64,000 nucleotides of DNA from Phaeobacter sp. HF9A (lineage in GTDB: Bacteria; Pseudomonadota; Alphaproteobacteria; Rhodobacterales; Rhodobacteraceae), in assembly GCF_011806385.1 (NCBI RefSeq), contig NZ_JAATOX010000006.1, forward strand, positions 1 to 64,000. Direction: 5' to 3'. Position 1 is the stretch's first letter, and each line of letters starts with the position of its first letter. Below, piece after piece: positions 13,125 to 34,177 of the stretch. The position numbers were made by a program, and so were the translations under genes. Below the pieces are notes generated by a model. The model was not told the DNA's origin and made no database searches. It was given only the letters and a program-made list of their open reading frames with translations.

Positions 13125-13285
13125 CGCCTCACCAGCAGGGCAGTGCCGATTGTCCAGCTGACGATCCTGCCAAAATATCAATTCTAACGGATTTTTTGCG
13201 CCTGCGCCGGTCGCTGAGTAGAATTCATCAACCTTTGATCCCTAGCGTCGGACGCATTCGCATCATTCAAGGGGCAAGACGCGCA

Positions 13286-14167
13286 ATGACAGTTGGGGCA
13301 AGGGGAACTCTGTGCAAATGGGTCATCGCAAGTTTTCTGGTCGGGATTTTGTCGAACACCGCGGCGCAGGCCTCTGACGGGCACGGCGCAGCAGCGACGA
13401 GCCATGCCAGCGCCGACACGACATCCGCCGCAACCAATGGCGGGATTTGCCATGGGTTTGGACCTCAAACCCCCCGCGACATTGGCGATTTTGCCGGTGC
13501 CAATACAGCGAGCTTTGCCATGGCGCCGCCACCGGCAGCGATGAACCTCTGTAATATCCATACCCACACCAATGCCGAACACAAAGGCCCCGGATTCTCT
13601 CAGCCCGCAGGCGGCAGCAAGGCGGGCGGCTATCTGTGCAATGAAACCCGGGACCTGAGCATTCAGGAACAGATTGATCCGACCGGCGGCCATGGCGCGT
13701 TTGAGGGGATCCATCCCGGCGATACGATCGAGGTGCATTGGGTCTATACCTCTTGCAATGTCACCCCCGGCCACGGCCTTGGCTCTTGTGTCAGCGACAG
13801 CTGCGCCAACCCCACCCTGCGGGTGGAAAGCCAGGTGTTCCTGGTGGTGAATGATGATGACGCGCTGAACTTTCACGACTTCGCCTACGCCGGACATATG
13901 GAAAACGGCCTGCATCAGCCGCAATCCCTGCCAACCGGCACCGGCGCGCCCGTGGTGTTTCGCGGCTCCACCACCGGACCAAGCTATACCGAAAGCACCT
14001 GCTCACCCTATCAAGTGACCTGGAGCGTGCGCCCCTCCTGCGCGAAACTCTCCTATTCCTCGATCAATTCCTGGGCGGCAAATGGCAATGTGTTTGGGGA
14101 AAACCACAGTCACGGCGTGCGCGAACTCGTGACCGCGCCGGAGCTGCTGGCACCAATCCACTATTAG
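13286..14167 (+). CDS. Delta-class carbonic anhydrase, secreted
   Basis: A 293-residue protein matching the delta class of carbonic anhydrases known first from marine diatoms: the motif LCNIHTHTNAEHKG near residue 87, with histidines and a glutamate suited to bind zinc, is typical. Such enzymes hydrate CO2 to bicarbonate. An N-terminal signal peptide is clear (hydrophobic WVIASFLVGILS, cleavage near AQA-S at about residue 29), so it acts in the periplasm or outside. At least eight cysteines (for example GICHG, YLCNE, GSCVSDSC, STCSP) could form disulfides. The ATG at 13286 is chosen because it places the signal peptide at the N terminus. It is monocistronic, with a histone-deacetylase-like gene 89 bases downstream. 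Confidence 0.85.
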   Translation: MTVGARGTLCKWVIASFLVGILSNTAAQASDGHGAAATSHASADTTSAATNGGICHGFGPQTPRDIGDFAGANTASFAMAPPPAAMNLCNIHTHTNAEHKGPGFSQPAGGSKAGGYLCNETRDLSIQEQIDPTGGHGAFEGIHPGDTIEVHWVYTSCNVTPGHGLGSCVSDSCANPTLRVESQVFLVVNDDDALNFHDFAYAGHMENGLHQPQSLPTGTGAPVVFRGSTTGPSYTESTCSPYQVTWSVRPSCAKLSYSSINSWAANGNVFGENHSHGVRELVTAPELLAPIHY

Positions 14168-24048: not shown

Positions 24049-25515
24049 TTACAGGAAGGCCGTTTCGTCAAACGAGCGCAGTTTCCGACTGTGGAGCCGC
24101 GCCAGTGGCATTGTCCTCAGTCGCTCCATCGCCTTGATCCCGATCAGAAGGTGCTTTGACACCTGGGTGCGATAAAAGTCCGATGCCATGCCCGGCAGTT
24201 TCAATTCGCCATGCAGCGGCTTGTCGGAGATGCACAGGAGCGTGCCATAGGGCACCCGAAAGCGGTAGCCGTTGGCGGCAATTGTTGCGCTTTCCATATC
24301 CAGCGCAATCGCGCGGGACTGGCTGAGCCGCTGGACCGGGCCGGAATGGTCGCGCAGTTCCCAATTGCGGTTGTCGTGGCTGGCGACGGTGCCGGTGCGC
24401 ATGATGCGCTTGAGATCATACCCCTCAAGCCCGGTTTCCTCTGCCACGGCTTCCTCCAACGCGACCTGGATTTCCGCCAGCGCCGGGATCGGCACCCAGA
24501 CCGGCAGATCGTCATCCAGCACGTGGTCTTCGCGCAGATAGGCATGCGCCAGCACGAAATCCCCCAGCGCCTGAGAGTTCCTGAGCCCCGCGCAATGGCC
24601 CACCATCAGCCAGGCATGCGGGCGCAGCACGGCGATATGGTCTGTGGCGGTCTTGGCGTTGGAAGGTCCGACACCGATATTGACCAGCGTGATGCCATTC
24701 CCGTCCGGGCGTTTCAGGTGATAGGTCGGCATCTGTGGCATCTTGGGGCTGTCGGGCAGCTGGCCGTCCGCCGTGGTGATCTCGACGTTGCCGGTCGAGA
24801 CAAAGCTGGTGTAGCCGCTCTCCGGGTCAGCAAGCTGGGCACGGGCGTAGGCCTCGAACTCGGTCACATAGAACTGGTAGTTGGTGAACAACACATGGTT
24901 CTGGAAATGCTCCGGCTCGGTGGCGGTATAATGCGACAAGCGCGCCAGCGAATAATCGACCCGTTGGGCCGTAAACAGCGCCAGCGGGCCGACACCGTTT
25001 TCCCGCACAAAGGTGCCGTTGACGATATCGTCATTGGTGGTCGCCAGATCCGGCACGTCAAAAACGTCGCGCAGCGGGAACCGCGCGGCCCCTTCCTGCG
25101 GCACTGTCAGACCGGGCCGGGAGGCGACGGCAAAATGCACCGGCATCTGCGTGTCGGAAACACCGATCACCACCGGTTGATCGTGGTTCTTGATCAAAAG
25201 GCCGATCTGCTGTTCGAGATACTGCTGGAACAGATCGGGCCGCGTCACGGTGGTGACATAGGTGCCGGGATCGGCCACATGGCCAAAGCTCAACCGGCTG
25301 TCCACCTGCGCATAGGTGGTGGTGGTAAAGCGTACCTCCGGGTAATAGGCACGCACACGCCCGCCCGGGGCAGCGCCCGCGCGCATCGCAGCCATGAACT
25401 CATCGCACAGAAAACTGGTTGCGGCGTCATAAAGCTCGATCAGCCGGGCCACGGCGGCCTTGGGATCGGTAAAGCTCTCTGCGGCGGGAAGGCTGGGGGT
25501 CTTGATATCACTCAT
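24049..25515 (-). CDS. amn: AMP nucleosidase
   Basis: A 488-residue protein that splits AMP into adenine and ribose 5-phosphate. It has the two-part family layout: an N-terminal regulatory domain (through about residue 190) and a C-terminal phosphorylase-like catalytic domain containing VGHCAGLRNSQALGDFVLAH near residue 305 and MESATIAANGYRFRVPYGTLL near residue 408. Length matches the roughly 484-residue enzyme of E. coli. Its start overlaps the end of the adenine deaminase gene by eight bases, so the two are translationally coupled and make a route AMP to adenine to hypoxanthine. Confidence 0.95.
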   Translation of the reverse strand: MSDIKTPSLPAAESFTDPKAAVARLIELYDAATSFLCDEFMAAMRAGAAPGGRVRAYYPEVRFTTTTYAQVDSRLSFGHVADPGTYVTTVTRPDLFQQYLEQQIGLLIKNHDQPVVIGVSDTQMPVHFAVASRPGLTVPQEGAARFPLRDVFDVPDLATTNDDIVNGTFVRENGVGPLALFTAQRVDYSLARLSHYTATEPEHFQNHVLFTNYQFYVTEFEAYARAQLADPESGYTSFVSTGNVEITTADGQLPDSPKMPQMPTYHLKRPDGNGITLVNIGVGPSNAKTATDHIAVLRPHAWLMVGHCAGLRNSQALGDFVLAHAYLREDHVLDDDLPVWVPIPALAEIQVALEEAVAEETGLEGYDLKRIMRTGTVASHDNRNWELRDHSGPVQRLSQSRAIALDMESATIAANGYRFRVPYGTLLCISDKPLHGELKLPGMASDFYRTQVSKHLLIGIKAMERLRTMPLARLHSRKLRSFDETAFL

Positions 25516-27313
25516 TGAACGGCTCGATTACTGGAATTTTCTTGAAGGTTCGCACATCGACAAGGCCAAGGTCGCTGATCCGAAGTTCCGGGATCACCAC
25601 CAGCGCCAAAAGCGAGTGCTGCATATAGGCATTGTTGAGCCGACAACCACAGTCCTGCATGGCCTCGACCAGTTTTTGCGCCTTGGCGGCCACCTCGGAG
25701 GCGGGGCGATCCGACATCAGCCCGGCAATCGGCAGCTCCACCAGCGCCAGTTCCTCGCCGTCGCGATAGAGGGTGATGCCGCCGCCGACCTCGGCCAGCC
25801 GGTTCGCCGCCAGCGCCATCTGCGCCCGATCGGTGCCAACCACGATCATATGATGACTGTCATGCGCCACGGTGGAGGCCATCGCCATTTTGCCCTGATA
25901 CCCAAAGCCGGACACAAAGGCGTTGGTGACACCACCGGTGGCCTGATGCCGCTCCACCAGTGCGATCTGGCAGACGTCGCCCACGCCCTCGACCAGCCCA
26001 TCCTTGACCGGCAGCTCGGCTTTCAGCGCCTTGGTCGGGGCCTGGTTTTCCACCACTCCGATAACATTGGCGGTGACCGCATTCGCGCCCTCTGGTGCGG
26101 CAAGTTCAAAATCCGTCGCGCTCAGCTCATGGCCCAGATGCACGGTGCCACGGGCCGCGTCCGGCCAATCCAGATGCGGGCAATCCACCTTGATAGAGCC
26201 TGCTTCCGCCACGATCTGCCCGCGCGCGATCACCAGCTCGATCGGCAGGCTGCTCAGATCAGACGTCAGGATCACATCCGCCCGCCGACCGGGGGTGAGG
26301 GAGCCGATTTCGCGCTCCAGCCCGAAATGGGTCGCGGTGTTGATCGTCGCCATCTGAAGCGCGATCAGCGGATCACAGCCGCAGTCGATGGCGTGGCGCA
26401 CCACCCGGTTCATATGACCGTCGTTCACCAGCGTGCCGGAATGGCAATCATCGGTGCAGAGGATAAAGTTGCGCGGATCGAGGCCCTTTTCGGTAATCGC
26501 GGTGATCTGCGCCTCGACGTCGTACCAGGCTGAGCCCAGCCGCACCATCGCCCGCATCCCCTGCCGCATTCGCGCGATCGCATCCGCCTCGCAGGTGCCC
26601 TCGTGATCGTCCGCCGGACCACCGGCAACATAGGCGGCAAAATCCGGCCCCAAATCGGGCGAGGCATAATGGCCACCGACGGTCTTGCCCGCGCGCTGGG
26701 TGGCGGCAATCTCTGCCAGCATCTTTGGGTCGGCATTGGCGACACCGGGAAAGTTCATCATCTCGCCCAGGCCGATAATGCCGGGCCAGGTCATCGCCTC
26801 CGCCACATCCTCGGCCGAGATCTCATAGCCGGTGGTCTCCAGCCCCGGCGCGGATGGCGCGCAGGAGGGCATCTGGGTGTAGATATTGATCGGCTGCAAC
26901 AGCGCCTCGTCGTGCATCAATCGCACACCTTCAAGGCCGAGCACATTGGCGATCTCATGCGGGTCGGTGAACATGCTGGTGGTGCCATGCGGAATAACCG
27001 CGCGGGCAAATTCCGCCGGAGTCAGCATGCCGCTCTCGATATGCATATGCGCATCGCAAAGGCCGGGCACCATATAGCGCCCCTCGGCCTCGATCACCTG
27101 CGTGTCGGGCCCCGTGCAATATGAGGCATCCGGTCCGACATAGGCGATGCGCCCGGCGCGGATCGCGATGTCATGCCCGTCGAGCACCTCGCGCGTGTGC
27201 ACATTCACCCATTTGCCATTACGGATCACCGTATCCGCGGGCGCGCGCCCGGCTGCGGTTTCGATCAATTGGGAAGCGACGTCGGGCCAGCTAGGGAAAG
27301 TCGAATGTGTCAT
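25508..27313 (-). CDS. ade: Adenine deaminase
   Basis: A 601-residue metal-dependent amidohydrolase that deaminates adenine to hypoxanthine. The metal motif GLCDAHMHIESGM near residue 91 and the following GTTSMFTDPHEIANVLG are characteristic, as are GHYASPDLG near residue 215 and CTDDCHSGTLVNDGH near residue 285. Length is the family norm. It is the first gene of a two-gene operon with amn. This combination salvages adenylate nitrogen and ribose, and avoids build-up of adenine. Confidence 0.96.
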   Translation of the reverse strand: MTHSTFPSWPDVASQLIETAAGRAPADTVIRNGKWVNVHTREVLDGHDIAIRAGRIAYVGPDASYCTGPDTQVIEAEGRYMVPGLCDAHMHIESGMLTPAEFARAVIPHGTTSMFTDPHEIANVLGLEGVRLMHDEALLQPINIYTQMPSCAPSAPGLETTGYEISAEDVAEAMTWPGIIGLGEMMNFPGVANADPKMLAEIAATQRAGKTVGGHYASPDLGPDFAAYVAGGPADDHEGTCEADAIARMRQGMRAMVRLGSAWYDVEAQITAITEKGLDPRNFILCTDDCHSGTLVNDGHMNRVVRHAIDCGCDPLIALQMATINTATHFGLEREIGSLTPGRRADVILTSDLSSLPIELVIARGQIVAEAGSIKVDCPHLDWPDAARGTVHLGHELSATDFELAAPEGANAVTANVIGVVENQAPTKALKAELPVKDGLVEGVGDVCQIALVERHQATGGVTNAFVSGFGYQGKMAMASTVAHDSHHMIVVGTDRAQMALAANRLAEVGGGITLYRDGEELALVELPIAGLMSDRPASEVAAKAQKLVEAMQDCGCRLNNAYMQHSLLALVVIPELRISDLGLVDVRTFKKIPVIEPFNE

Positions 27314-27579: not shown

Positions 27580-28773
27580 ATGCATGTAATCGCCGATACC
27601 GAGGCGCTGGTCCATGATGGCACCCTGACCCGGGAGCAGGCGCAAGTGTTGGAGACGCGCTCGCGCGAGGTGATGATGTCCCTGGCCGTCAATGCCATCC
27701 TCTGCTTTGGCATCATTGCCGCCACGGCGGGTTTAATCGTCTGGCTGGCAAACCCCGTCGCGGTCGCGGTAATCGGGGCGCTGATGCTGGGGGCCGGGCT
27801 GGCGGTACTGGCGCGCGGGTCAGCCACCTATGCGATGTTTGGCAACTCTGCGGTGCTGATCGGTATCGGCATGCTGCTCGGCGGCGCCACTGTGGAGCTG
27901 ATCGACAAGCATGAGGATCTGGCGGGCTGGATCTTGGCACTCACCGGGCTGCTGGTGGCGCTGATCTGTCTCTGGCGCTGGCGCACCGGCGCATGGTCTG
28001 CGCATTTCGTCTTGGGCACTGCGCTGCTGATGGGGCTGCTGATGCATCTCGGCGGCCTGGAATTTCTGGTTGTTCAATATGATCTTGGTGGGCCTTGGCG
28101 CAATCTGCTGCTGCTTTATTACGCCGCCGCGCTGGCGCTGGCGGGTTGGCAGTTGAACGTCCGGCTGGTGACAGCGCTGGCGCTGATCCCCTTCGCCCAG
28201 ATCCTGGAAACCGGAACCGCCTATTTTCACGCCCTCTATGCGTTTTATTCGCCAGAGCCGACGCTGACCATTCTGCAAATGGCGCTCCTGGTGGCGCTGT
28301 GCCTCTGGGGAGCCGCGCATCTGCCGGAGCGCGATGCCCGCCATCTGCGCATCCTTGCCATTCTTGGCTTTATCGTGGCCAATCTATGCGCGTTGGTCGG
28401 CGCGCTTTGGGGCGATGTGGTGGGCGAACACCTTTGGGGGCCCGGGCGGTATACTACCGGCTGGGAGGACTACGAGACCTACAGCGCCGCGCGCGACACC
28501 TTTCGTTCCCATGCGCTCACCCTGTCCGAGCTGCATTATTCGGTGATCTGGGCGTGCGCGCTGGTGACGATGATCCTCTGGGCGGCCTCGCGCAACCAGC
28601 GTGGGCTGTTCAACACCGCCCTGACCTTTGCCGCGATCCATTTCTACACACAGATGTTTGAAAGCTTCGCCGATGAACCGCTGGCCTATGTGATCGGCGG
28701 CCTTGGCGCGATCCCGCTGGCCTGGGGTGTCTGGCGACTGAACCAATGGATGACCACGCGGCAACACGACTAG
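27580..28773 (+). CDS. Multi-pass membrane protein, DUF2157-like
   Basis: A 397-residue protein with about ten to twelve hydrophobic segments. The N-terminal cytoplasmic segment (GTLTREQAQVLETRSRE) followed by tightly packed helices resembles DUF2157-type proteins, but no function is known for these. The only sizeable soluble stretch is GRYTTGWEDYETYSAARDTF near residues 290-310, probably a periplasmic loop. It is 28 bases upstream of the acyl-CoA dehydrogenase and so may be co-transcribed with the CoA cluster, though nothing in the sequence links it to that metabolism. Confidence 0.7.
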   Translation: MHVIADTEALVHDGTLTREQAQVLETRSREVMMSLAVNAILCFGIIAATAGLIVWLANPVAVAVIGALMLGAGLAVLARGSATYAMFGNSAVLIGIGMLLGGATVELIDKHEDLAGWILALTGLLVALICLWRWRTGAWSAHFVLGTALLMGLLMHLGGLEFLVVQYDLGGPWRNLLLLYYAAALALAGWQLNVRLVTALALIPFAQILETGTAYFHALYAFYSPEPTLTILQMALLVALCLWGAAHLPERDARHLRILAILGFIVANLCALVGALWGDVVGEHLWGPGRYTTGWEDYETYSAARDTFRSHALTLSELHYSVIWACALVTMILWAASRNQRGLFNTALTFAAIHFYTQMFESFADEPLAYVIGGLGAIPLAWGVWRLNQWMTTRQHD

Positions 28774-28801
28774 GCGACTCTGCTTCAGGAAAGGAGCTCC
28801 G

Positions 28802-29965
28802 ATGCATTTCGGCATGAAAGATGAACAAAGGATGATCGTCGAGACCACCCGCACCTTTGTCGAAAAGGAGCTCTATCCGCATGAGCAGGAAATCGAGCGC
28901 AGCGGCCATCTTGATATGGACCTGGTGAAAGAGATCCAGGCCAAGGCGATCAACGCCGGGCTTTACGCTGCGAATATGCCCGCAGAGGTCGGCGGGGCGG
29001 GCCTCGATACGCTGACGTGGCTGATGTATGAAAAGGAACTCGGCCGCGCCAATTATGCGCTGCACTGGACCGGCGTTGCGCGTCCCTCGAATATCCTGCT
29101 GGCTGGCACCAAGACCCAAAAAGAGCAATATCTGTTCCCCTGTATCCGGGGCGAAAAATGGGACTGTCTGGCGATGACAGAACCCGGCGCTGGCTCCGAT
29201 CTGCGCGGCATGTCTGCCACTGCGCGCAAGGAGGGTGAGGATTGGATCCTGAACGGCACCAAGCACTTTATCTCCCACGCCGACATCGCAGATTTCGCCA
29301 TCGTCTTTGTCGCCACCGGCGAAGAGGACACCCCGCGCGGCAAGAAGAAAAAGATCACCGCCTTTTTTGTCGATAAAGGCACCCCCGGCTTCACGGTGCG
29401 CGCGGGGTATCACAACGTCTCCCATCGCGGCTACAGCAATGCGGTGCTGGAATTCGACGACTGTCGCCTGCCCTCCGCTGCCATCCTCGGCGAGCTGCAC
29501 AAAGGGTTCGAGGTCGCGAACACCTGGCTCGGCGCCACCCGGCTGCAAGTCGCGGCAACCTGCCTTGGCCGGGCCGAGCGAGCACTGCAACATGCGCTGG
29601 AGTATGCCGCAGAGCGCACACAATTCGGCCAGCAGATCGGCAAGTTCCAGGGGGTCTCCTTCAAGTTGGCCGATATGGCGACGGAACTGAAAGCGGCGAA
29701 CCTGTTGACCTGGGAGGCCGGTTGGAAATTCGATCAGGGCAGCGTCACCGAAAGCGACATGTCGATGGCCAAGCTCAAGGCGACGGAAATGCTCGCCATG
29801 GTTGCAGATGAGGCGATCCAGATCCATGGCGGCATGGGACTGATGGAGGAGTTGCCCCTCGAACGCATCTGGCGCGACGCGCGTGTGGAGCGTATCTGGG
29901 AAGGAACCAGTGAAATTCAGCGGCATATCATCAGCCGCGAAATACTGCGACCGCTAGGAGGCTGA
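28802..29965 (+). CDS. Acyl-CoA dehydrogenase
   Basis: A 387-residue FAD enzyme that introduces an alpha-beta double bond into an acyl-CoA. The substrate/FAD motif CLAMTEPGAGSDLRGM near residue 122 and the C-terminal EGTSEIQRHIISREIL are typical, and IHGGMGLMEELPLERIWRDA near residue 340 fits the family. The catalytic base is probably the Glu in WEGTSE near residue 369. It is followed by a SelW-like gene, an NDP-forming CoA ligase and a CaiD-like hydratase, suggesting a pathway that activates, desaturates and hydrates an unusual acid. A relation to CaiA-type reductases is possible but not shown. Confidence 0.92.
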   Translation: MHFGMKDEQRMIVETTRTFVEKELYPHEQEIERSGHLDMDLVKEIQAKAINAGLYAANMPAEVGGAGLDTLTWLMYEKELGRANYALHWTGVARPSNILLAGTKTQKEQYLFPCIRGEKWDCLAMTEPGAGSDLRGMSATARKEGEDWILNGTKHFISHADIADFAIVFVATGEEDTPRGKKKKITAFFVDKGTPGFTVRAGYHNVSHRGYSNAVLEFDDCRLPSAAILGELHKGFEVANTWLGATRLQVAATCLGRAERALQHALEYAAERTQFGQQIGKFQGVSFKLADMATELKAANLLTWEAGWKFDQGSVTESDMSMAKLKATEMLAMVADEAIQIHGGMGLMEELPLERIWRDARVERIWEGTSEIQRHIISREILRPLGG

Positions 29966-29968
29966 CCC

Positions 29969-30283
29969 ATGACCGAGACCACCCACACCCCGCACAAACC
30001 CAACGTGAGCATCACCTATTGCATCGGCTGCAACTGGCTGCTGCGGGCGGCGTGGATGGGGCAGGAATTGCTCTCCACCTTTCAGGAACAACTCGGTGGC
30101 GTCACCCTGATTCCCGGCGAGATCGGCGGCACCTTCGAGATCACCGTGGATGGCGAACTGCTCTGGGAACGCAAGCGGGATGGTGGCTTTCCGGATGTCA
30201 AAGAGCTGAAAACCCGGCTGCGTGACATCATCAACCCGGGCCAGGATCTTGGTCATCTGGATCGCGATAGCTCCGGTGAATGA
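29969..30283 (+). CDS. SelT/SelW/SelH-family selenoprotein-like redox protein (Cys form)
   Basis: A 104-residue thioredoxin-fold protein of the Rdx/SelW family. The redox motif is Cys18-x-x-Cys21 in ITYCIGCNWLLRA, where eukaryotic relatives have selenocysteine; here the codon is ordinary cysteine. GEIGGTFEITVDGELLWERK and FPDVKELKTRLRD follow as in the family. It sits three bases after the acyl-CoA dehydrogenase and overlaps or abuts the CoA ligase, so it is part of this operon. Its redox partner is unknown. Confidence 0.87.
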   Translation: MTETTHTPHKPNVSITYCIGCNWLLRAAWMGQELLSTFQEQLGGVTLIPGEIGGTFEITVDGELLWERKRDGGFPDVKELKTRLRDIINPGQDLGHLDRDSSGE

Positions 30284-30290
30284 TCCCAAA

Positions 30291-32330
30291 ATGCAGGCTC
30301 TAAAAAGGCTATTTCAGCCCAAAAGCATCGCTGTGATTGGCGGCGGTGCCTGGTGCGCTGCGGTGATCGAACAATGCATCAAGATGGGGTTTGAGGGCGA
30401 TATCTGGCCCGTCCACCCCACGGCCGACGAGGTCGCTGGCCTGTCCGCATACCGTGATGTCAGCGCCCTACCCGCCGCGCCGGACGCGAGCTTCATCGGG
30501 GTGAACCGTGTGACGACCGTTGAAATCCTGCGCGCCCTGGCCGCGCGCGATGCCGGTGGTGCGGTCTGTTTTGCATCGGGCTTTATGGAGTCTGACGCCG
30601 AAGATGCAGAAGCGGCCGACCTTCAGGCGCAGTTGCTGGAGGCCGCCGGCGAGATGCCGATCCTCGGGCCGAACTGCTATGGGTTTATCAACTATCTCGA
30701 CGGGGCGCTGCTCTGGCCGGATCAACATGGCGGGGAGCGGGTGGAAAGCGGCGTCGCGATCCTGACCCAGAGCTCCAACATCGCGCTCAACCTGACGATG
30801 CAACGGCGCGCCCTGCCACTGGCCTATGTGGTCACCTGCGGCAATCAGGCCCAGACCGGCCTTGCCGCCATTGGCGAGGCGCTGCTGGACGACACCCGCG
30901 TCACCGCACTGGGGCTGCACATCGAAGGGGTCGGCGATCTGCGCGCCTTTGAGGCACTGGCCGCCAAGGCGCGCCAGCTGGGCAAGCCGATTATTGCACT
31001 CAAACTCGGCCAATCCTCGCAGGCCCGCGCCGCGATGCTGTCCCACACTGCCTCGCTCGCCGGGGGGGACGCCGGGGCGCAGGCGCTGCTGGCTCGGCTC
31101 GGAATTCCCCGGCTCCACGATCTGCCCTCCTTTCTGGAAACGCTGAAACTGTTGCATGTGGTTGGCCCTCTGCCCTCCACCCGGATCGCAACGATGAGCT
31201 GTTCGGGCGGCGAGGCCAGCCTTTCTGCGGATACCGCCCATGGGCGTGGTGTCAGCTTCCCGCCGCTGAATGACCGCCAACAGAACGATCTGCGTGCGGC
31301 TCTAGGGCCGATGGTGGCGCTGGCCAATCCGCTCGACTATCACACCTATATCTGGCGCGATCAGGCCGCGATCACCCGGACCCTCGCTGCCTTGGCGGAT
31401 CCGCAGCAGGCGCTGACCATCCTGATTGCGGATTTCCCGCGTGGTGATCGTTGCGATACCACGGATTGGGCCTGCACCCTGCAAGCCGCGATTGCTGCAC
31501 GCGCAGAGACCGGACAGAATATCGCCCTGCTTGCGACCCTGCCGGAGCTCTTGCCCGAGGATCTGGCAGCAGAGCTTCTTGCTGCGGGCGTGGTGCCCCT
31601 GCTCGGCCTGCCGGAGGCCATGACCGCGATCCAGGCGGCCGCCACGGCCCAACCAACGACCCCGCCACCGCTGCTGCTGCCGACCCCCTCGCACAGTGAC
31701 CCGGATCTGGTGCCCGAAGGCGAGGCCAAGACCTGGCTCTCCCGCTTTGGCCTCCGGGTGCCGCGCGCCAAACTGGCCCGCACGGTTGTCGCCGCCCGCG
31801 CCGTGGCGGCGGATATCGGCTATCCTGTTGTGCTCAAGGGCGAAGGCATCGCCCACAAGACCGAAGACGGCGCGGTGAAGCTGAACCTCTGCTCCGGGCA
31901 GGAGGTCAGCGACGCCGCCGTCGCCATGCCCACCAATCGTTTTCTCATCGAGGAAATGATCCCCGATGCGGTCGCCGAACTGTTGATCGGCGTGATCAAG
32001 GATCCGGCGCATGGGTTTGTGCTGACCCTGGCCGCTGGTGGCACGCTGACCGAAATCATGCAGGATCAGGCCTCCCTGCTGCTGCCCGCAAGTGACGAGA
32101 TGCTGAATACCGCCCTCGACAGCCTGCGCATCGCGCCCCTGCTGGCCGGGTATCGCGGCGCGCCGGCAGCGGATCGCGCGGCCATCCTGCGCGCCATCCG
32201 CGCGGTGGAAGCCTATGTGCTGGCCGAGGCCGAAGGGCTGGAAGAGATTGAAATAAACCCGCTGCTCTGCACGCCCACGGATGCGGTGGCGGCAGATGCG
32301 TTGATACGCCGAAAGGACCTGTTGCGATGA
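30291..32330 (+). CDS. Acetate-CoA ligase family (NDP-forming acyl-CoA synthetase)
   Basis: A 679-residue fused NDP-forming acyl-CoA synthetase. The CoA-binding Rossmann domain begins PKSIAVIGGG, the succinyl-CoA-synthetase-like middle domain has the phosphohistidine motif MLSHTASLAGGDAGAQ (His252), and the C-terminal ATP-grasp domain includes YPVVLKGEGIAHKTEDGAVKL and EIEINPLL. The ATG at 30291 is chosen; a GTG at 30276, overlapping the previous gene, is possible, and neither has a good ribosome-binding site. It presumably activates the acid used by the neighbouring dehydrogenase and hydratase. ATP-dependent DMSP lyase DddX belongs to this superfamily, but nothing here points to it specifically. 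Confidence 0.88.
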   Translation: MQALKRLFQPKSIAVIGGGAWCAAVIEQCIKMGFEGDIWPVHPTADEVAGLSAYRDVSALPAAPDASFIGVNRVTTVEILRALAARDAGGAVCFASGFMESDAEDAEAADLQAQLLEAAGEMPILGPNCYGFINYLDGALLWPDQHGGERVESGVAILTQSSNIALNLTMQRRALPLAYVVTCGNQAQTGLAAIGEALLDDTRVTALGLHIEGVGDLRAFEALAAKARQLGKPIIALKLGQSSQARAAMLSHTASLAGGDAGAQALLARLGIPRLHDLPSFLETLKLLHVVGPLPSTRIATMSCSGGEASLSADTAHGRGVSFPPLNDRQQNDLRAALGPMVALANPLDYHTYIWRDQAAITRTLAALADPQQALTILIADFPRGDRCDTTDWACTLQAAIAARAETGQNIALLATLPELLPEDLAAELLAAGVVPLLGLPEAMTAIQAAATAQPTTPPPLLLPTPSHSDPDLVPEGEAKTWLSRFGLRVPRAKLARTVVAARAVAADIGYPVVLKGEGIAHKTEDGAVKLNLCSGQEVSDAAVAMPTNRFLIEEMIPDAVAELLIGVIKDPAHGFVLTLAAGGTLTEIMQDQASLLLPASDEMLNTALDSLRIAPLLAGYRGAPAADRAAILRAIRAVEAYVLAEAEGLEEIEINPLLCTPTDAVAADALIRRKDLLR

Positions 32331-33115
32331 CCGAGAGCTCCCCCGTCAAGACCCGCCGCGACGGCGCCATACTGGAAGTGACACTGGACCGCCCCAAGGC
32401 CAATGCCATCGACCTTGCGACCTCCCGCATCCTGGGCGAGACCTTTCTGGGTTTTCGCGACGACCCGGACCTGCGGGTGGCGATTCTCACCGGTGGCGGC
32501 GAGAAGTTCTTTTGCCCCGGCTGGGACCTGAAGGCGGCTGCGGCGGGCGATGCCGTGGACGGCGACTATGGCGTCGGCGGCTTTGGCGGCTTGCAGGAGC
32601 TGCGCGACATGAACAAACCGGTGATTGCGGCGGTGAACGGCATTGCCTGCGGCGGCGGGCTGGAACTGGCGCTTTCGGCGGATCTCATTCTTGCGGCGGA
32701 GCATGCCACCTTTGCGCTGCCGGAAATCCGCTCTGGCACCGTTGCCGATGCGGCCTCGATCAAGCTGCCCAAGCGCATTCCCTATCACATCGCCATGGAG
32801 CTTTTGCTGACCGGGCGCTGGTTTGATGCCGAGGAGGCGCATCGCTGGGGTCTGGTGAACGAGATCGTCGCGGCGGATCAATTGATGGACCGCGCCCGGG
32901 AATTGGCCCGTCTGCTCGCCTCCGGCCCGCCGCTGGTTTATGCGGCAATCAAGGAAATCGTGCGCGACGCCGAGGATTCCAAATTTCAGGACGCCATGAA
33001 CCGGATCACCGGTCGGCAGCTGCGGACGGTGGATGTGCTTTATGGCTCAGACGACAACCGCGAGGGCGCCCTGGCCTTCTCGAAAAAGCGAGATCCGGTC
33101 TGGAAAGGACGCTGA
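32327..33115 (+). CDS. Carnitinyl-CoA dehydratase-like enoyl-CoA hydratase
   Basis: A 262-residue crotonase. It closely resembles E. coli CaiD, with TLDRPKANAID near residue 19, GWDLKAAA near residue 65 and the C-terminal LAFSKKRDPVWKGR. The two catalytic glutamates are present as Glu113 (GGGLELALSAD) and Glu133 (ALPEIRSG). The loop after Glu133, usually GxxPDxGG, reads GTVADAAS, so Pro and both Gly are lost. The start overlaps the CoA ligase by four bases. Crotonobetainyl-CoA is a reasonable guess at substrate, but no caiB or caiC is nearby. Confidence 0.85.
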   Translation: MTESSPVKTRRDGAILEVTLDRPKANAIDLATSRILGETFLGFRDDPDLRVAILTGGGEKFFCPGWDLKAAAAGDAVDGDYGVGGFGGLQELRDMNKPVIAAVNGIACGGGLELALSADLILAAEHATFALPEIRSGTVADAASIKLPKRIPYHIAMELLLTGRWFDAEEAHRWGLVNEIVAADQLMDRARELARLLASGPPLVYAAIKEIVRDAEDSKFQDAMNRITGRQLRTVDVLYGSDDNREGALAFSKKRDPVWKGR

Positions 33116-33286
33116 CGAATGATTGACCAAGCGACGTTTCACCCCGACGAAATCTTCGTAGCCAAGCCAAGATGATATCCAAAATCAGGATCTTATGCAG
33201 CAATACGTAATGTTGATCCGGTCAGTGGCGTGTTTCGGCATGCTCTCGACTTGCATCCGCGCTTTTCCGGTCGCATGGTCCGACGC

Positions 33287-34177
33287 ATGAGCACAGAAAC
33301 ACGCAAAACACTCCTCTGTCTTGGCTTTGGCTACACCGCGCGCGCGCTGGCCGCGCGGCTCCTGGATCAGGGCTGGCGGGTCATCGGCACCACCCGAAAC
33401 AGCGGCGACTCGGCGCCGATGCAGGGCGTCGAGCTGGTAACCTGGCCCGGCGAGGCAATTCCGCTGGACGGCGTGACCCATATCCTGGTCTCCATCAGCC
33501 CGACCAGCGAGGGCGACCCCGTGGTCAATGCGCTGCAAGATCAGATCACCCAGATTTCAACCCTGGAGTGGCTCGGCTATCTTTCCACCACTGCGGTCTA
33601 TGGCGACCAGGATGGCGCCTGGGTTGACGAGTCAACCCCGGCCCTCCCCTCCAGCCAACGCGGCGAGTGGCGTGCCCAGGCAGAGGCCGCCTGGCAGGCG
33701 CTGCCGGATCTGCCGCTGCATGTCTTTCGCCTCGCCGGGATTTACGGCCCGGGGCGCGGCCCCTTTGCCAAGCTGATGGCGGGCAAGGCGCGGCGCATCG
33801 TGAAGCCGGGGCAGGTGTTTTCCCGCATTCACGTAGACGATATTGCGCAGGTTCTGATGGCCTCCATCGCGCGCCCAAATCCCGGCGCGATCTATAACGT
33901 CTGTGATGATGAGCCCGCACCACCGCAGGACGTTCTGGGCTATGCTGCCGAGCTTCTTGGCCTGCCCGTCCCCGCCGAAGTGCCCTTTGACGAGGCAGGC
34001 ATGAGCCCAATGGCCCGCAGTTTTTACGGCGAAAACAAGCGCGTCCACAACACCCGCATCAAGGAGGAGCTGGGCGTCTCGCTGCTCTATCCGGAGTATC
34101 GCAGCGGTTTGCAGGCGGTGCTGGCGGCCGAAGACATGGAAAACTTCACGCCGCCCTCAGATCCGCCCGCGCTCTAA
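33287..34177 (+). CDS. NAD(P)-dependent epimerase/dehydratase-like protein (SDR)
   Basis: A 296-residue protein of the atypical/extended short-chain dehydrogenase group similar to YeeZ. The nucleotide-binding loop is LGFGYTARALAARLL near residue 12, and YLSTTAVYGDQDG near residue 100 and FRLAGIYGPGRGPF near residue 148 match the family. The classical YxxxK catalytic pair is not obvious. The ATG at 33287 is chosen because it starts just before the Rossmann strand; an upstream ATG at 33230 would add an implausible basic leader. Substrate unknown. Confidence 0.83.
   Translation: MSTETRKTLLCLGFGYTARALAARLLDQGWRVIGTTRNSGDSAPMQGVELVTWPGEAIPLDGVTHILVSISPTSEGDPVVNALQDQITQISTLEWLGYLSTTAVYGDQDGAWVDESTPALPSSQRGEWRAQAEAAWQALPDLPLHVFRLAGIYGPGRGPFAKLMAGKARRIVKPGQVFSRIHVDDIAQVLMASIARPNPGAIYNVCDDEPAPPQDVLGYAAELLGLPVPAEVPFDEAGMSPMARSFYGENKRVHNTRIKEELGVSLLYPEYRSGLQAVLAAEDMENFTPPSDPPAL

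What the first reader, a model, noticed from the sequence alone, without database searches (positions are those of the whole stretch)
28802..33115. Compact CoA-thioester pathway with a SelW-like redox protein and a modified CaiD-type hydratase
Acyl-CoA dehydrogenase, SelW-family protein, NDP-forming CoA ligase and a CaiD-like crotonase are packed with 4-base overlaps or few-base gaps. The set could activate, oxidise and hydrate one specific acid, in the way that dmdBCD processes methylmercaptopropionate. The crotonase keeps both catalytic glutamates but its loop reads GTVADAAS rather than the usual GxxPDxGG, hinting at a different substrate. A SelW-type thioredoxin-fold protein in such an operon is unusual and could be a dedicated redox partner.
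Basis: partly seen in the sequence, partly recalled or inferred. Interest (0 to 1): 0.5.

Follow-up and report, generated by a model that had tools for sequence, protein, structure and literature searches.

The report
Butyrobetaine-to-carnitine operon plus SelW gene
Three of the four genes look like a known bacterial route that turns gamma-butyrobetaine into carnitine; the fourth, a small SelW-type redox gene, seems to be an old resident of this chromosomal spot rather than a needed part of the pathway.

Summary
The four ORFs are real and tightly packed. The conserved core is three genes: acyl-CoA dehydrogenase, NDP-forming acyl-CoA ligase, CaiD-like crotonase. In 14 of 17 named loci found with the ligase, a carnitine 3-dehydrogenase homologue lies beside them. 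A Sinorhizobium meliloti locus has the same order, its ligase in two ORFs; S. meliloti BcoAB is a documented gamma-butyrobetaine:CoA ligase. The window's genome holds carnitine 3-dehydrogenase and a 3-dehydrocarnitine-cleavage-type enzyme on other contigs. Best reading: the trio makes L-carnitinyl-CoA from gamma-butyrobetaine. The 'odd' crotonase loop is the family signature (74 of 74). SelW is in 36 of 395 family genomes; in 18 of the 23 that also hold the ligase it sits between dehydrogenase and ligase. But 10 of 18 stand-alone SelW genes sit in the window's own chromosomal neighbourhood (adenine deaminase, AMP nucleosidase, SDR gene), so the linkage may be positional history. In passing: relatives carry, in that slot, a structured RNA found in 158 of 199 family genomes without an Rfam match.

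The parts
28802..29965 (+). acyl-CoA dehydrogenase, proposed gamma-butyrobetainyl-CoA dehydrogenase
   Evidence: aligned to 2vig incl. EGTSEIQ; 65% to the S. meliloti locus
29969..30283 (+). SelW/Rdx-family thioredoxin-fold protein, CxxC (CIGC)
   Evidence: PF10262; TIGR02174 above cut-off; 2fa8 E 2.1e-38
30291..32330 (+). fused alpha-beta NDP-forming acyl-CoA ligase, proposed gamma-butyrobetaine:CoA ligase (fused BcoAB); longest ORF from GTG 30222
   Evidence: (57% alpha / 45% beta to the two-ORF S. meliloti ligase)
32327..33115 (+). CaiD-like crotonase, proposed crotonobetainyl-CoA hydratase; loop GTVADAAS
   Evidence: best NCBIfam model PRK03580, below its cut-off; 78% to the S. meliloti locus

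Best explanation
The ligase, dehydrogenase and crotonase convert gamma-butyrobetaine stepwise to gamma-butyrobetainyl-CoA, crotonobetainyl-CoA and L-carnitinyl-CoA. The carnitine 3-dehydrogenase/thioesterase and the beta-keto acid cleavage enzyme encoded elsewhere in the genome would carry L-carnitine on to glycine betaine. Shown here: the genes, their families, conserved order, linkage to carnitine genes in relatives, presence of the downstream enzymes in this genome. Inferred: substrate and reactions in this organism. SelW is an old and often missing gene of this spot in Rhodobacteraceae; the trio occurs without it in most genomes, so it is probably not needed for the chemistry.
For: Carnitine 3-dehydrogenase homologue beside the trio in 14 of 17 named loci, cleavage enzyme homologue in 13 (assigned by similarity to the Rhizobium N324 genes). 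Annotated together with the trio in Rhizobium N324, Palleronia, Alloyangia, Thioclava and S. meliloti records. The Rhizobium dehydrogenase passes NF005716 (938 bits, cut-off 592). S. meliloti Ak57 has the same order with the ligase as two overlapping ORFs, fitting the name BcoAB, used as gamma-butyrobetaine:CoA ligase in PMC8364193 (passages). The window genome has carnitine 3-dehydrogenase (718 bits over 592, cut by a contig end) and the cleavage enzyme at 71% identity. One ligase of this type in the genome (next best 33% identity). Six family genomes carry cleavage enzyme, carnitine dehydrogenase, ACAD, SelW and ligase in a row, with the crotonase following in the five not cut by a contig end.
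Against: In the window genome the trio is not next to the carnitine genes, and in only 12 of 39 Rhodobacteraceae loci that I chose is either of them in the fetched stretch (up to about 9 kb a side, some cut by contig ends); two Ruegeria records also have the trio without them nearby. None of the NCBIfam models shown is met at its cut-off by dehydrogenase, ligase or crotonase (25 of 74 models shown for the crotonase); the crotonase scores 327 of 500 for PRK03580, the carnitine-linked Rhizobium one 316. The two S. meliloti ligase ORFs are not annotated, so a frameshift in that record is not excluded. The S. meliloti paper was not held. No biochemistry in this organism.
Confidence: 0.85

Rival explanations
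1. The trio acts on a different short acid or betaine (for example delta-valerobetaine, or crotonobetaine taken up as such) and the carnitine genes elsewhere are unrelated.
For: In the window genome and in 27 of 39 chosen family loci the carnitine genes are not in the fetched stretch around the trio; no curated cut-off met.
Against: Relatives with the same crotonase loop sit beside the carnitine genes in other lineages; one ligase of this type in the genome; downstream genes present.
Confidence: 0.1
2. The set is a DMSP or methylmercaptopropionate route like DmdBCD, or the ligase is a DddX-type DMSP lyase.
For: A PDB entry called DMSP lyase (7cm9; the name DddX is recalled) is the only solved structure aligned in one stretch over nearly the whole ligase (residues 27-696, 162 bits); acryloyl-CoA reductase is the best NCBIfam model for the dehydrogenase, far below cut-off (298 of 640).
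Against: DmdB is AMP-forming (recalled), this ligase has the NDP-forming domains; the neighbourhood in relatives is carnitine. The carnitine-linked Rhizobium dehydrogenase has the same best NCBIfam model.
Confidence: 0.03
3. SelW is a dedicated redox partner of this pathway, for example keeping a thiol of the dehydrogenase or the CoA pool reduced.
For: 18 of 23 family genomes with both SelW and ligase have SelW between dehydrogenase and ligase, among them six full carnitine clusters away from the AMP nucleosidase/SDR spot; CxxC in 37 of 37 distinct SelW rows.
Against: 212 of 234 ligase-bearing family genomes have no SelW match; none in the slot in 14 of the 17 named loci (2 have it, 1 lacks the slot). 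10 of 18 stand-alone SelW genes lie by AMP nucleosidase, adenine deaminase and/or the SDR gene that also flank the window's operon, which explains the linkage by location. Association with one dehydrogenase type (14 of 20 against 4 of 51 rows) is not supported on independent pairs (median p 0.5).
Confidence: 0.08

Closest known systems
gamma-butyrobetaine to L-carnitine (BcoAB and partners) pathway of Sinorhizobium meliloti
   Same: homologous dehydrogenase (65%), ligase (57% and 45%) and crotonase (78%) in the same order; downstream carnitine enzymes present in the genome
   Different: ligase fused into one gene; carnitine dehydrogenase and cleavage enzyme not linked to the trio here; SelW gene between dehydrogenase and ligase
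E. coli cai operon (CaiA, CaiD; recalled)
   Same: CaiD-like crotonase; crotonobetainyl-CoA chemistry
   Different: no CoA-transferase in the set, an ATP-driven ligase instead; crotonase below the PRK03580 cut-off; oxidative direction (inferred)
DmdBCD (methylmercaptopropionate; recalled)
   Same: ligase-dehydrogenase-crotonase logic
   Different: ligase of another superfamily, different linkage
SelW/Rdx proteins such as Atu0228 (2fa8)
   Same: CxxC, family, length
   Different: placed inside a catabolic operon

Membership tests
gamma-butyrobetaine to carnitine (Bco-type) module | ligase, dehydrogenase and crotonase homologous to and ordered like the S. meliloti locus | tested here: met
   that this locus is the one studied as bcoAB is inferred
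gamma-butyrobetaine to carnitine (Bco-type) module | carnitine 3-dehydrogenase and 3-dehydrocarnitine cleavage enzyme in the same genome | tested here: met
   the first passes NF005716 although cut by a contig end; the second rests on 71% identity to the linked Rhizobium gene, no NCBIfam cut-off met
gamma-butyrobetaine to carnitine (Bco-type) module | physical linkage of trio and carnitine genes | tested here: not met
   they are on contigs C253 and C19. Met in 14 of 17 named loci
gamma-butyrobetaine to carnitine (Bco-type) module | activity with gamma-butyrobetaine | not testable with these tools
   needs assay
NCBIfam PRK03580 crotonobetainyl-CoA hydratase | score at or above 500 bits | tested here: not met
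   327 bits, best of 74 models matched; the carnitine-linked Rhizobium protein scores 316
SelW/Rdx (PF10262, TIGR02174) | profile above cut-off and CxxC | tested here: met
   101.2 over 22.6 and 66.7 over 34.2 bits, CIGC
acetate, 3-hydroxypropionate or 4-hydroxybutyrate--CoA ligase (NDP-forming) | NCBIfam equivalog cut-off | tested here: not met
   184 of 567, 193 of 1200, 190 of 1300, 178 of 1300 bits
DmdBCD | AMP-forming ligase DmdB (recalled) | tested here: not met
   ligase has CoA_binding_2, Succ_CoA_lig and ATP-grasp_5 domains

The most novel reading that the evidence does not exclude
In Rhodobacteraceae the slot between the gamma-butyrobetainyl-CoA dehydrogenase and ligase genes is a functional control point: it recurrently holds a SelW redox gene, a copy of a structured RNA that I could not match to a described family (R1, 158 of 199 genomes), or both. 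SelW would be a dedicated thiol-redox factor of the pathway, and the RNA a regulator that ties quaternary-amine use to other R1-bearing loci.
Probability: 0.08. Interest if true: 0.6.

Novelty: new member of a known kind. Interest (0 to 1): 0.3.

Why it matters
It proposes a substrate and pathway for a widespread set of genes that plasmid records annotate as 'acetate--CoA ligase family protein' and 'acyl-CoA dehydrogenase family protein': carnitine made from gamma-butyrobetaine on the way to glycine betaine. It also shows how a redox gene can look like part of a pathway because a catabolic operon and a resident gene share one chromosomal spot.

Tried and rejected
Loop as substrate hint: rejected, ADAA[ST] in 74 of 74 distinct crotonases of the trio, including carnitine-linked Rhizobium N324. 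SelW as a core member: rejected. SelW tied to one dehydrogenase type (at least 74% identity to the window's): raw table 14 of 20 against 4 of 51 rows, but independent pairs give median p 0.5, so not claimed. Neighbours of stand-alone SelW: on first reading by eye I saw none in common; the check showed that this was wrong. Direction of events (trio settling around SelW, or trio lost and SelW left) is not resolved. 15 SelW loci of other families (about 1.5 kb flanks) held no trio gene. Small ORFs in the dehydrogenase-ligase gap of relatives looked like genes at first; in 12 of 41 loci the gap holds the R1 element; in G004 a thioesterase-like ORF matching the C-terminal part of carnitine dehydrogenase lies there. 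Literature: searches were seen as listings; only 47 had SelW among its terms (one paper listed, not read). PMC8364193, PMC12482172 and PMC4809877 were seen as passages found by term. The S. meliloti paper (10.1128/JB.00772-18) was not held; what I know of it beyond those passages is recalled.
Full report
Observation. The four ORFs are present, co-directional and closely packed as described. Family searches give acyl-CoA dehydrogenase, Rdx/SelW, fused alpha-beta NDP-forming acyl-CoA ligase and crotonase. The ligase start should be moved from the mechanical GTG 30222 to about ATG 30291, because most homologues align only from about residue 20-27.

Conserved core. A scan of named genomes with the ligase found 17 loci. 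In 16 of 17 the dehydrogenase precedes the ligase; the exception, L015, begins inside the ligase. The crotonase follows in 12 of 17; in the other five the stretch ends inside or within about 240 bases of the ligase. SelW is present in 2 of 17, a Cognatishimia MAG and a Rhodobacteraceae MAG. In 39 Rhodobacteraceae loci with longer flanks, which I chose with SelW carriers over-represented (17 of 39), all three core genes are present in 38; the 39th is cut by a contig end.

Function. A carnitine 3-dehydrogenase homologue lies beside the trio in 14 of the 17 named loci and the '3-keto-5-aminohexanoate cleavage' type enzyme in 13. The three without it are L002, and L013 and L015, which are 3.3-3.5 kb fragments. 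Annotated plasmid records of Rhizobium, Palleronia, Alloyangia and Thioclava show the five genes together, while Ruegeria pomeroyi and Ruegeria THAF33 have the trio without them in the stretch seen. An S. meliloti record has regulator, cleavage enzyme, carnitine dehydrogenase, dehydrogenase, a ligase in two overlapping unannotated ORFs (480 and up to 228 aa) and crotonase. PMC8364193 (passages) used S. meliloti BcoAB as gamma-butyrobetaine:CoA ligase to make gamma-butyrobetainyl-CoA. PMC12482172 (passages) cites the S. meliloti work for a dual-function dehydrogenase acting on carnitine. That the two ORFs of strain Ak57 are bcoA and bcoB is my inference from position and family. The window's genome holds a carnitine 3-dehydrogenase passing NF005716 at the end of contig C253 and the cleavage enzyme beside a DJ-1/AraC-type regulator at the end of contig C19. 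The two could be neighbours across a contig break, but that was not shown.

The crotonase loop. Of 74 distinct crotonases of the trio, 74 carry ADAA[ST] in this loop, among them the carnitine-linked Rhizobium protein, whose loop region is identical to the window's. The loop marks this lineage and does not point to a new substrate.

SelW. In 395 Rhodobacteraceae genomes, 36 carry SelW and 234 carry the ligase at E <= 1e-130. Cross-reading the places with fetched loci, 23 genomes have both, counting G084, whose ligase is cut by a contig end. In 18 SelW lies between dehydrogenase and ligase; in G005, G033, G070, G247 and G356 it lies elsewhere. This is far from chance for one gene among some 4,000 (my estimate), although genomes share descent. 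On a ligase tree of 71 rows (18 with SelW) the state changes at least 9 times; on a SelW tree of 37 rows in-operon and stand-alone copies interleave with at least 8 changes, most branches weak. The dehydrogenase gene conflicts with the ligase tree (two types, at least 7 changes), so parts of the operon have been exchanged.

Where SelW lives without the trio. The window's operon is flanked by AMP nucleosidase (24049-25515), adenine deaminase (25508-27313) and, downstream, an SDR/epimerase gene (33230-34177). Of the 18 family genomes with stand-alone SelW, 8 have the same SDR gene close to SelW (only some 5-10 bases apart in several) and 10 have adenine deaminase and/or AMP nucleosidase near it (flanks 1.5-9 kb, so misses may be short flanks). 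These 10 include the 8. Of 18 loci of at least 7 kb with trio and SelW, 10 have one or more of these neighbours, and so do 9 of 22 with the trio alone. So SelW and the trio share one chromosomal spot in many genomes: the trio settled around a resident SelW, or was lost and left it. The other 8 trio-plus-SelW loci, including six full carnitine clusters, lie elsewhere as far as seen, so dehydrogenase-SelW-ligase has also stayed together away from that spot. In 290 genomes drawn from the class, 17 carry SelW, and none of the 15 loci from other families has a trio gene within about 1.5 kb.

Passing discovery. Between dehydrogenase and ligase, 12 of 41 loci examined hold a structured RNA-like element, in both orientations. 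Its core is GCGGUACAGGC-NNNNNN-GCCGAUGRCCGY, followed by a long hairpin. On 29 copies one free pair is UA 14, GC 13, AU 2 with none unpaired; the covariation score is 0.277 against a shuffled mean of 0.156, reached in 0 of 500 shuffles, while two measures are weaker (13 and 83 of 500 shuffles reach them) and the two outermost pairs fail in 19 and 10 of 29. My selecting pattern fixed several columns, so only the free pairs count. G-U pairs (13 and 8 of 29 at two pairs) favour the GGTACAGG strand. A covariance model matches in 158 of 199 family genomes at E <= 0.01, mostly 1-4 copies in the listed rows. The 12 loci are training sequences, so only their position is informative. Of the 30 loci fetched, 7 lie in this slot, three of them (G170, G124, G161) outside the training set. 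A T-run follows in 33 of 59 copies against 16.5% of random, mostly coding, stretches, a soft control. Six copies folded more stably than shuffles (z -2.7 to -4.1). Rfam 15 gave no match to the element at gathering score in 7 loci, and one chance-level miRNA hit in a permissive search of one locus. The window has no match (best E 0.55), but its genome has two copies elsewhere. Whether it is described under another name I could not settle; listings of two searches and passages of PMC4809877 did not show it, and no sequence comparison with published small RNAs was possible.

Verdict. Ordinary in its core: a fused-ligase member of the known gamma-butyrobetaine to carnitine route. The SelW gene is a real but probably positional companion.

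Noticed in passing
L002, L096, L103, L121, L126, L131, L136 and others, between dehydrogenase and ligase; window genome G000:C84:4751-4785 and G000:C262:24678-24712: A structured, covarying RNA-like element (model R1) in 158 of 199 Rhodobacteraceae genomes, mostly 1-4 copies, recurrent in this operon slot, also seen beside valS and between a GST gene and an acyl-CoA dehydrogenase gene; no Rfam 15 match in the loci searched.
   Followed up: partly
L062, L002, L101, L102, L122 between ligase and crotonase: A DJ-1/PfpI-family gene or its homologue sits between ligase and crotonase in Ruegeria pomeroyi and relatives.
   Followed up: no
dehydrogenase genes of L097, L101, L105, L113, L120 against their ligases: Two types of dehydrogenase (about 85% and 60% to the window's) are exchanged within otherwise related operons: at least 7 changes on the ligase tree.
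   Followed up: partly
L102 (G004): A separate thioesterase-like ORF matching the C-terminal part of carnitine dehydrogenase lies between SelW and ligase.
   Followed up: no
window 27580-28802: A 397-aa protein without Pfam or NCBIfam match abuts the operon. Homologues in L094, L097, L105 and L107 are followed by a divergent GlxA/GbdR-like regulator before the dehydrogenase; 23 of 39 family loci have such a regulator directly upstream (my count). The window has lost it there.
   Followed up: partly
window 24049-27313 and 33230-34177; L056-L058, L077, L080, L140-L142: Stand-alone SelW genes are often next to adenine deaminase, AMP nucleosidase and an SDR gene, the same genes that flank the window's operon; a possible functional link of SelW with that SDR gene was not tested.
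   Followed up: partly
window 13196-14167: A protein matching the delta carbonic anhydrase family PF10563 (E 8.9e-65).
   Followed up: no
L131:12721-12767: A guanidine-II riboswitch match downstream of the operon in G216.
   Followed up: no
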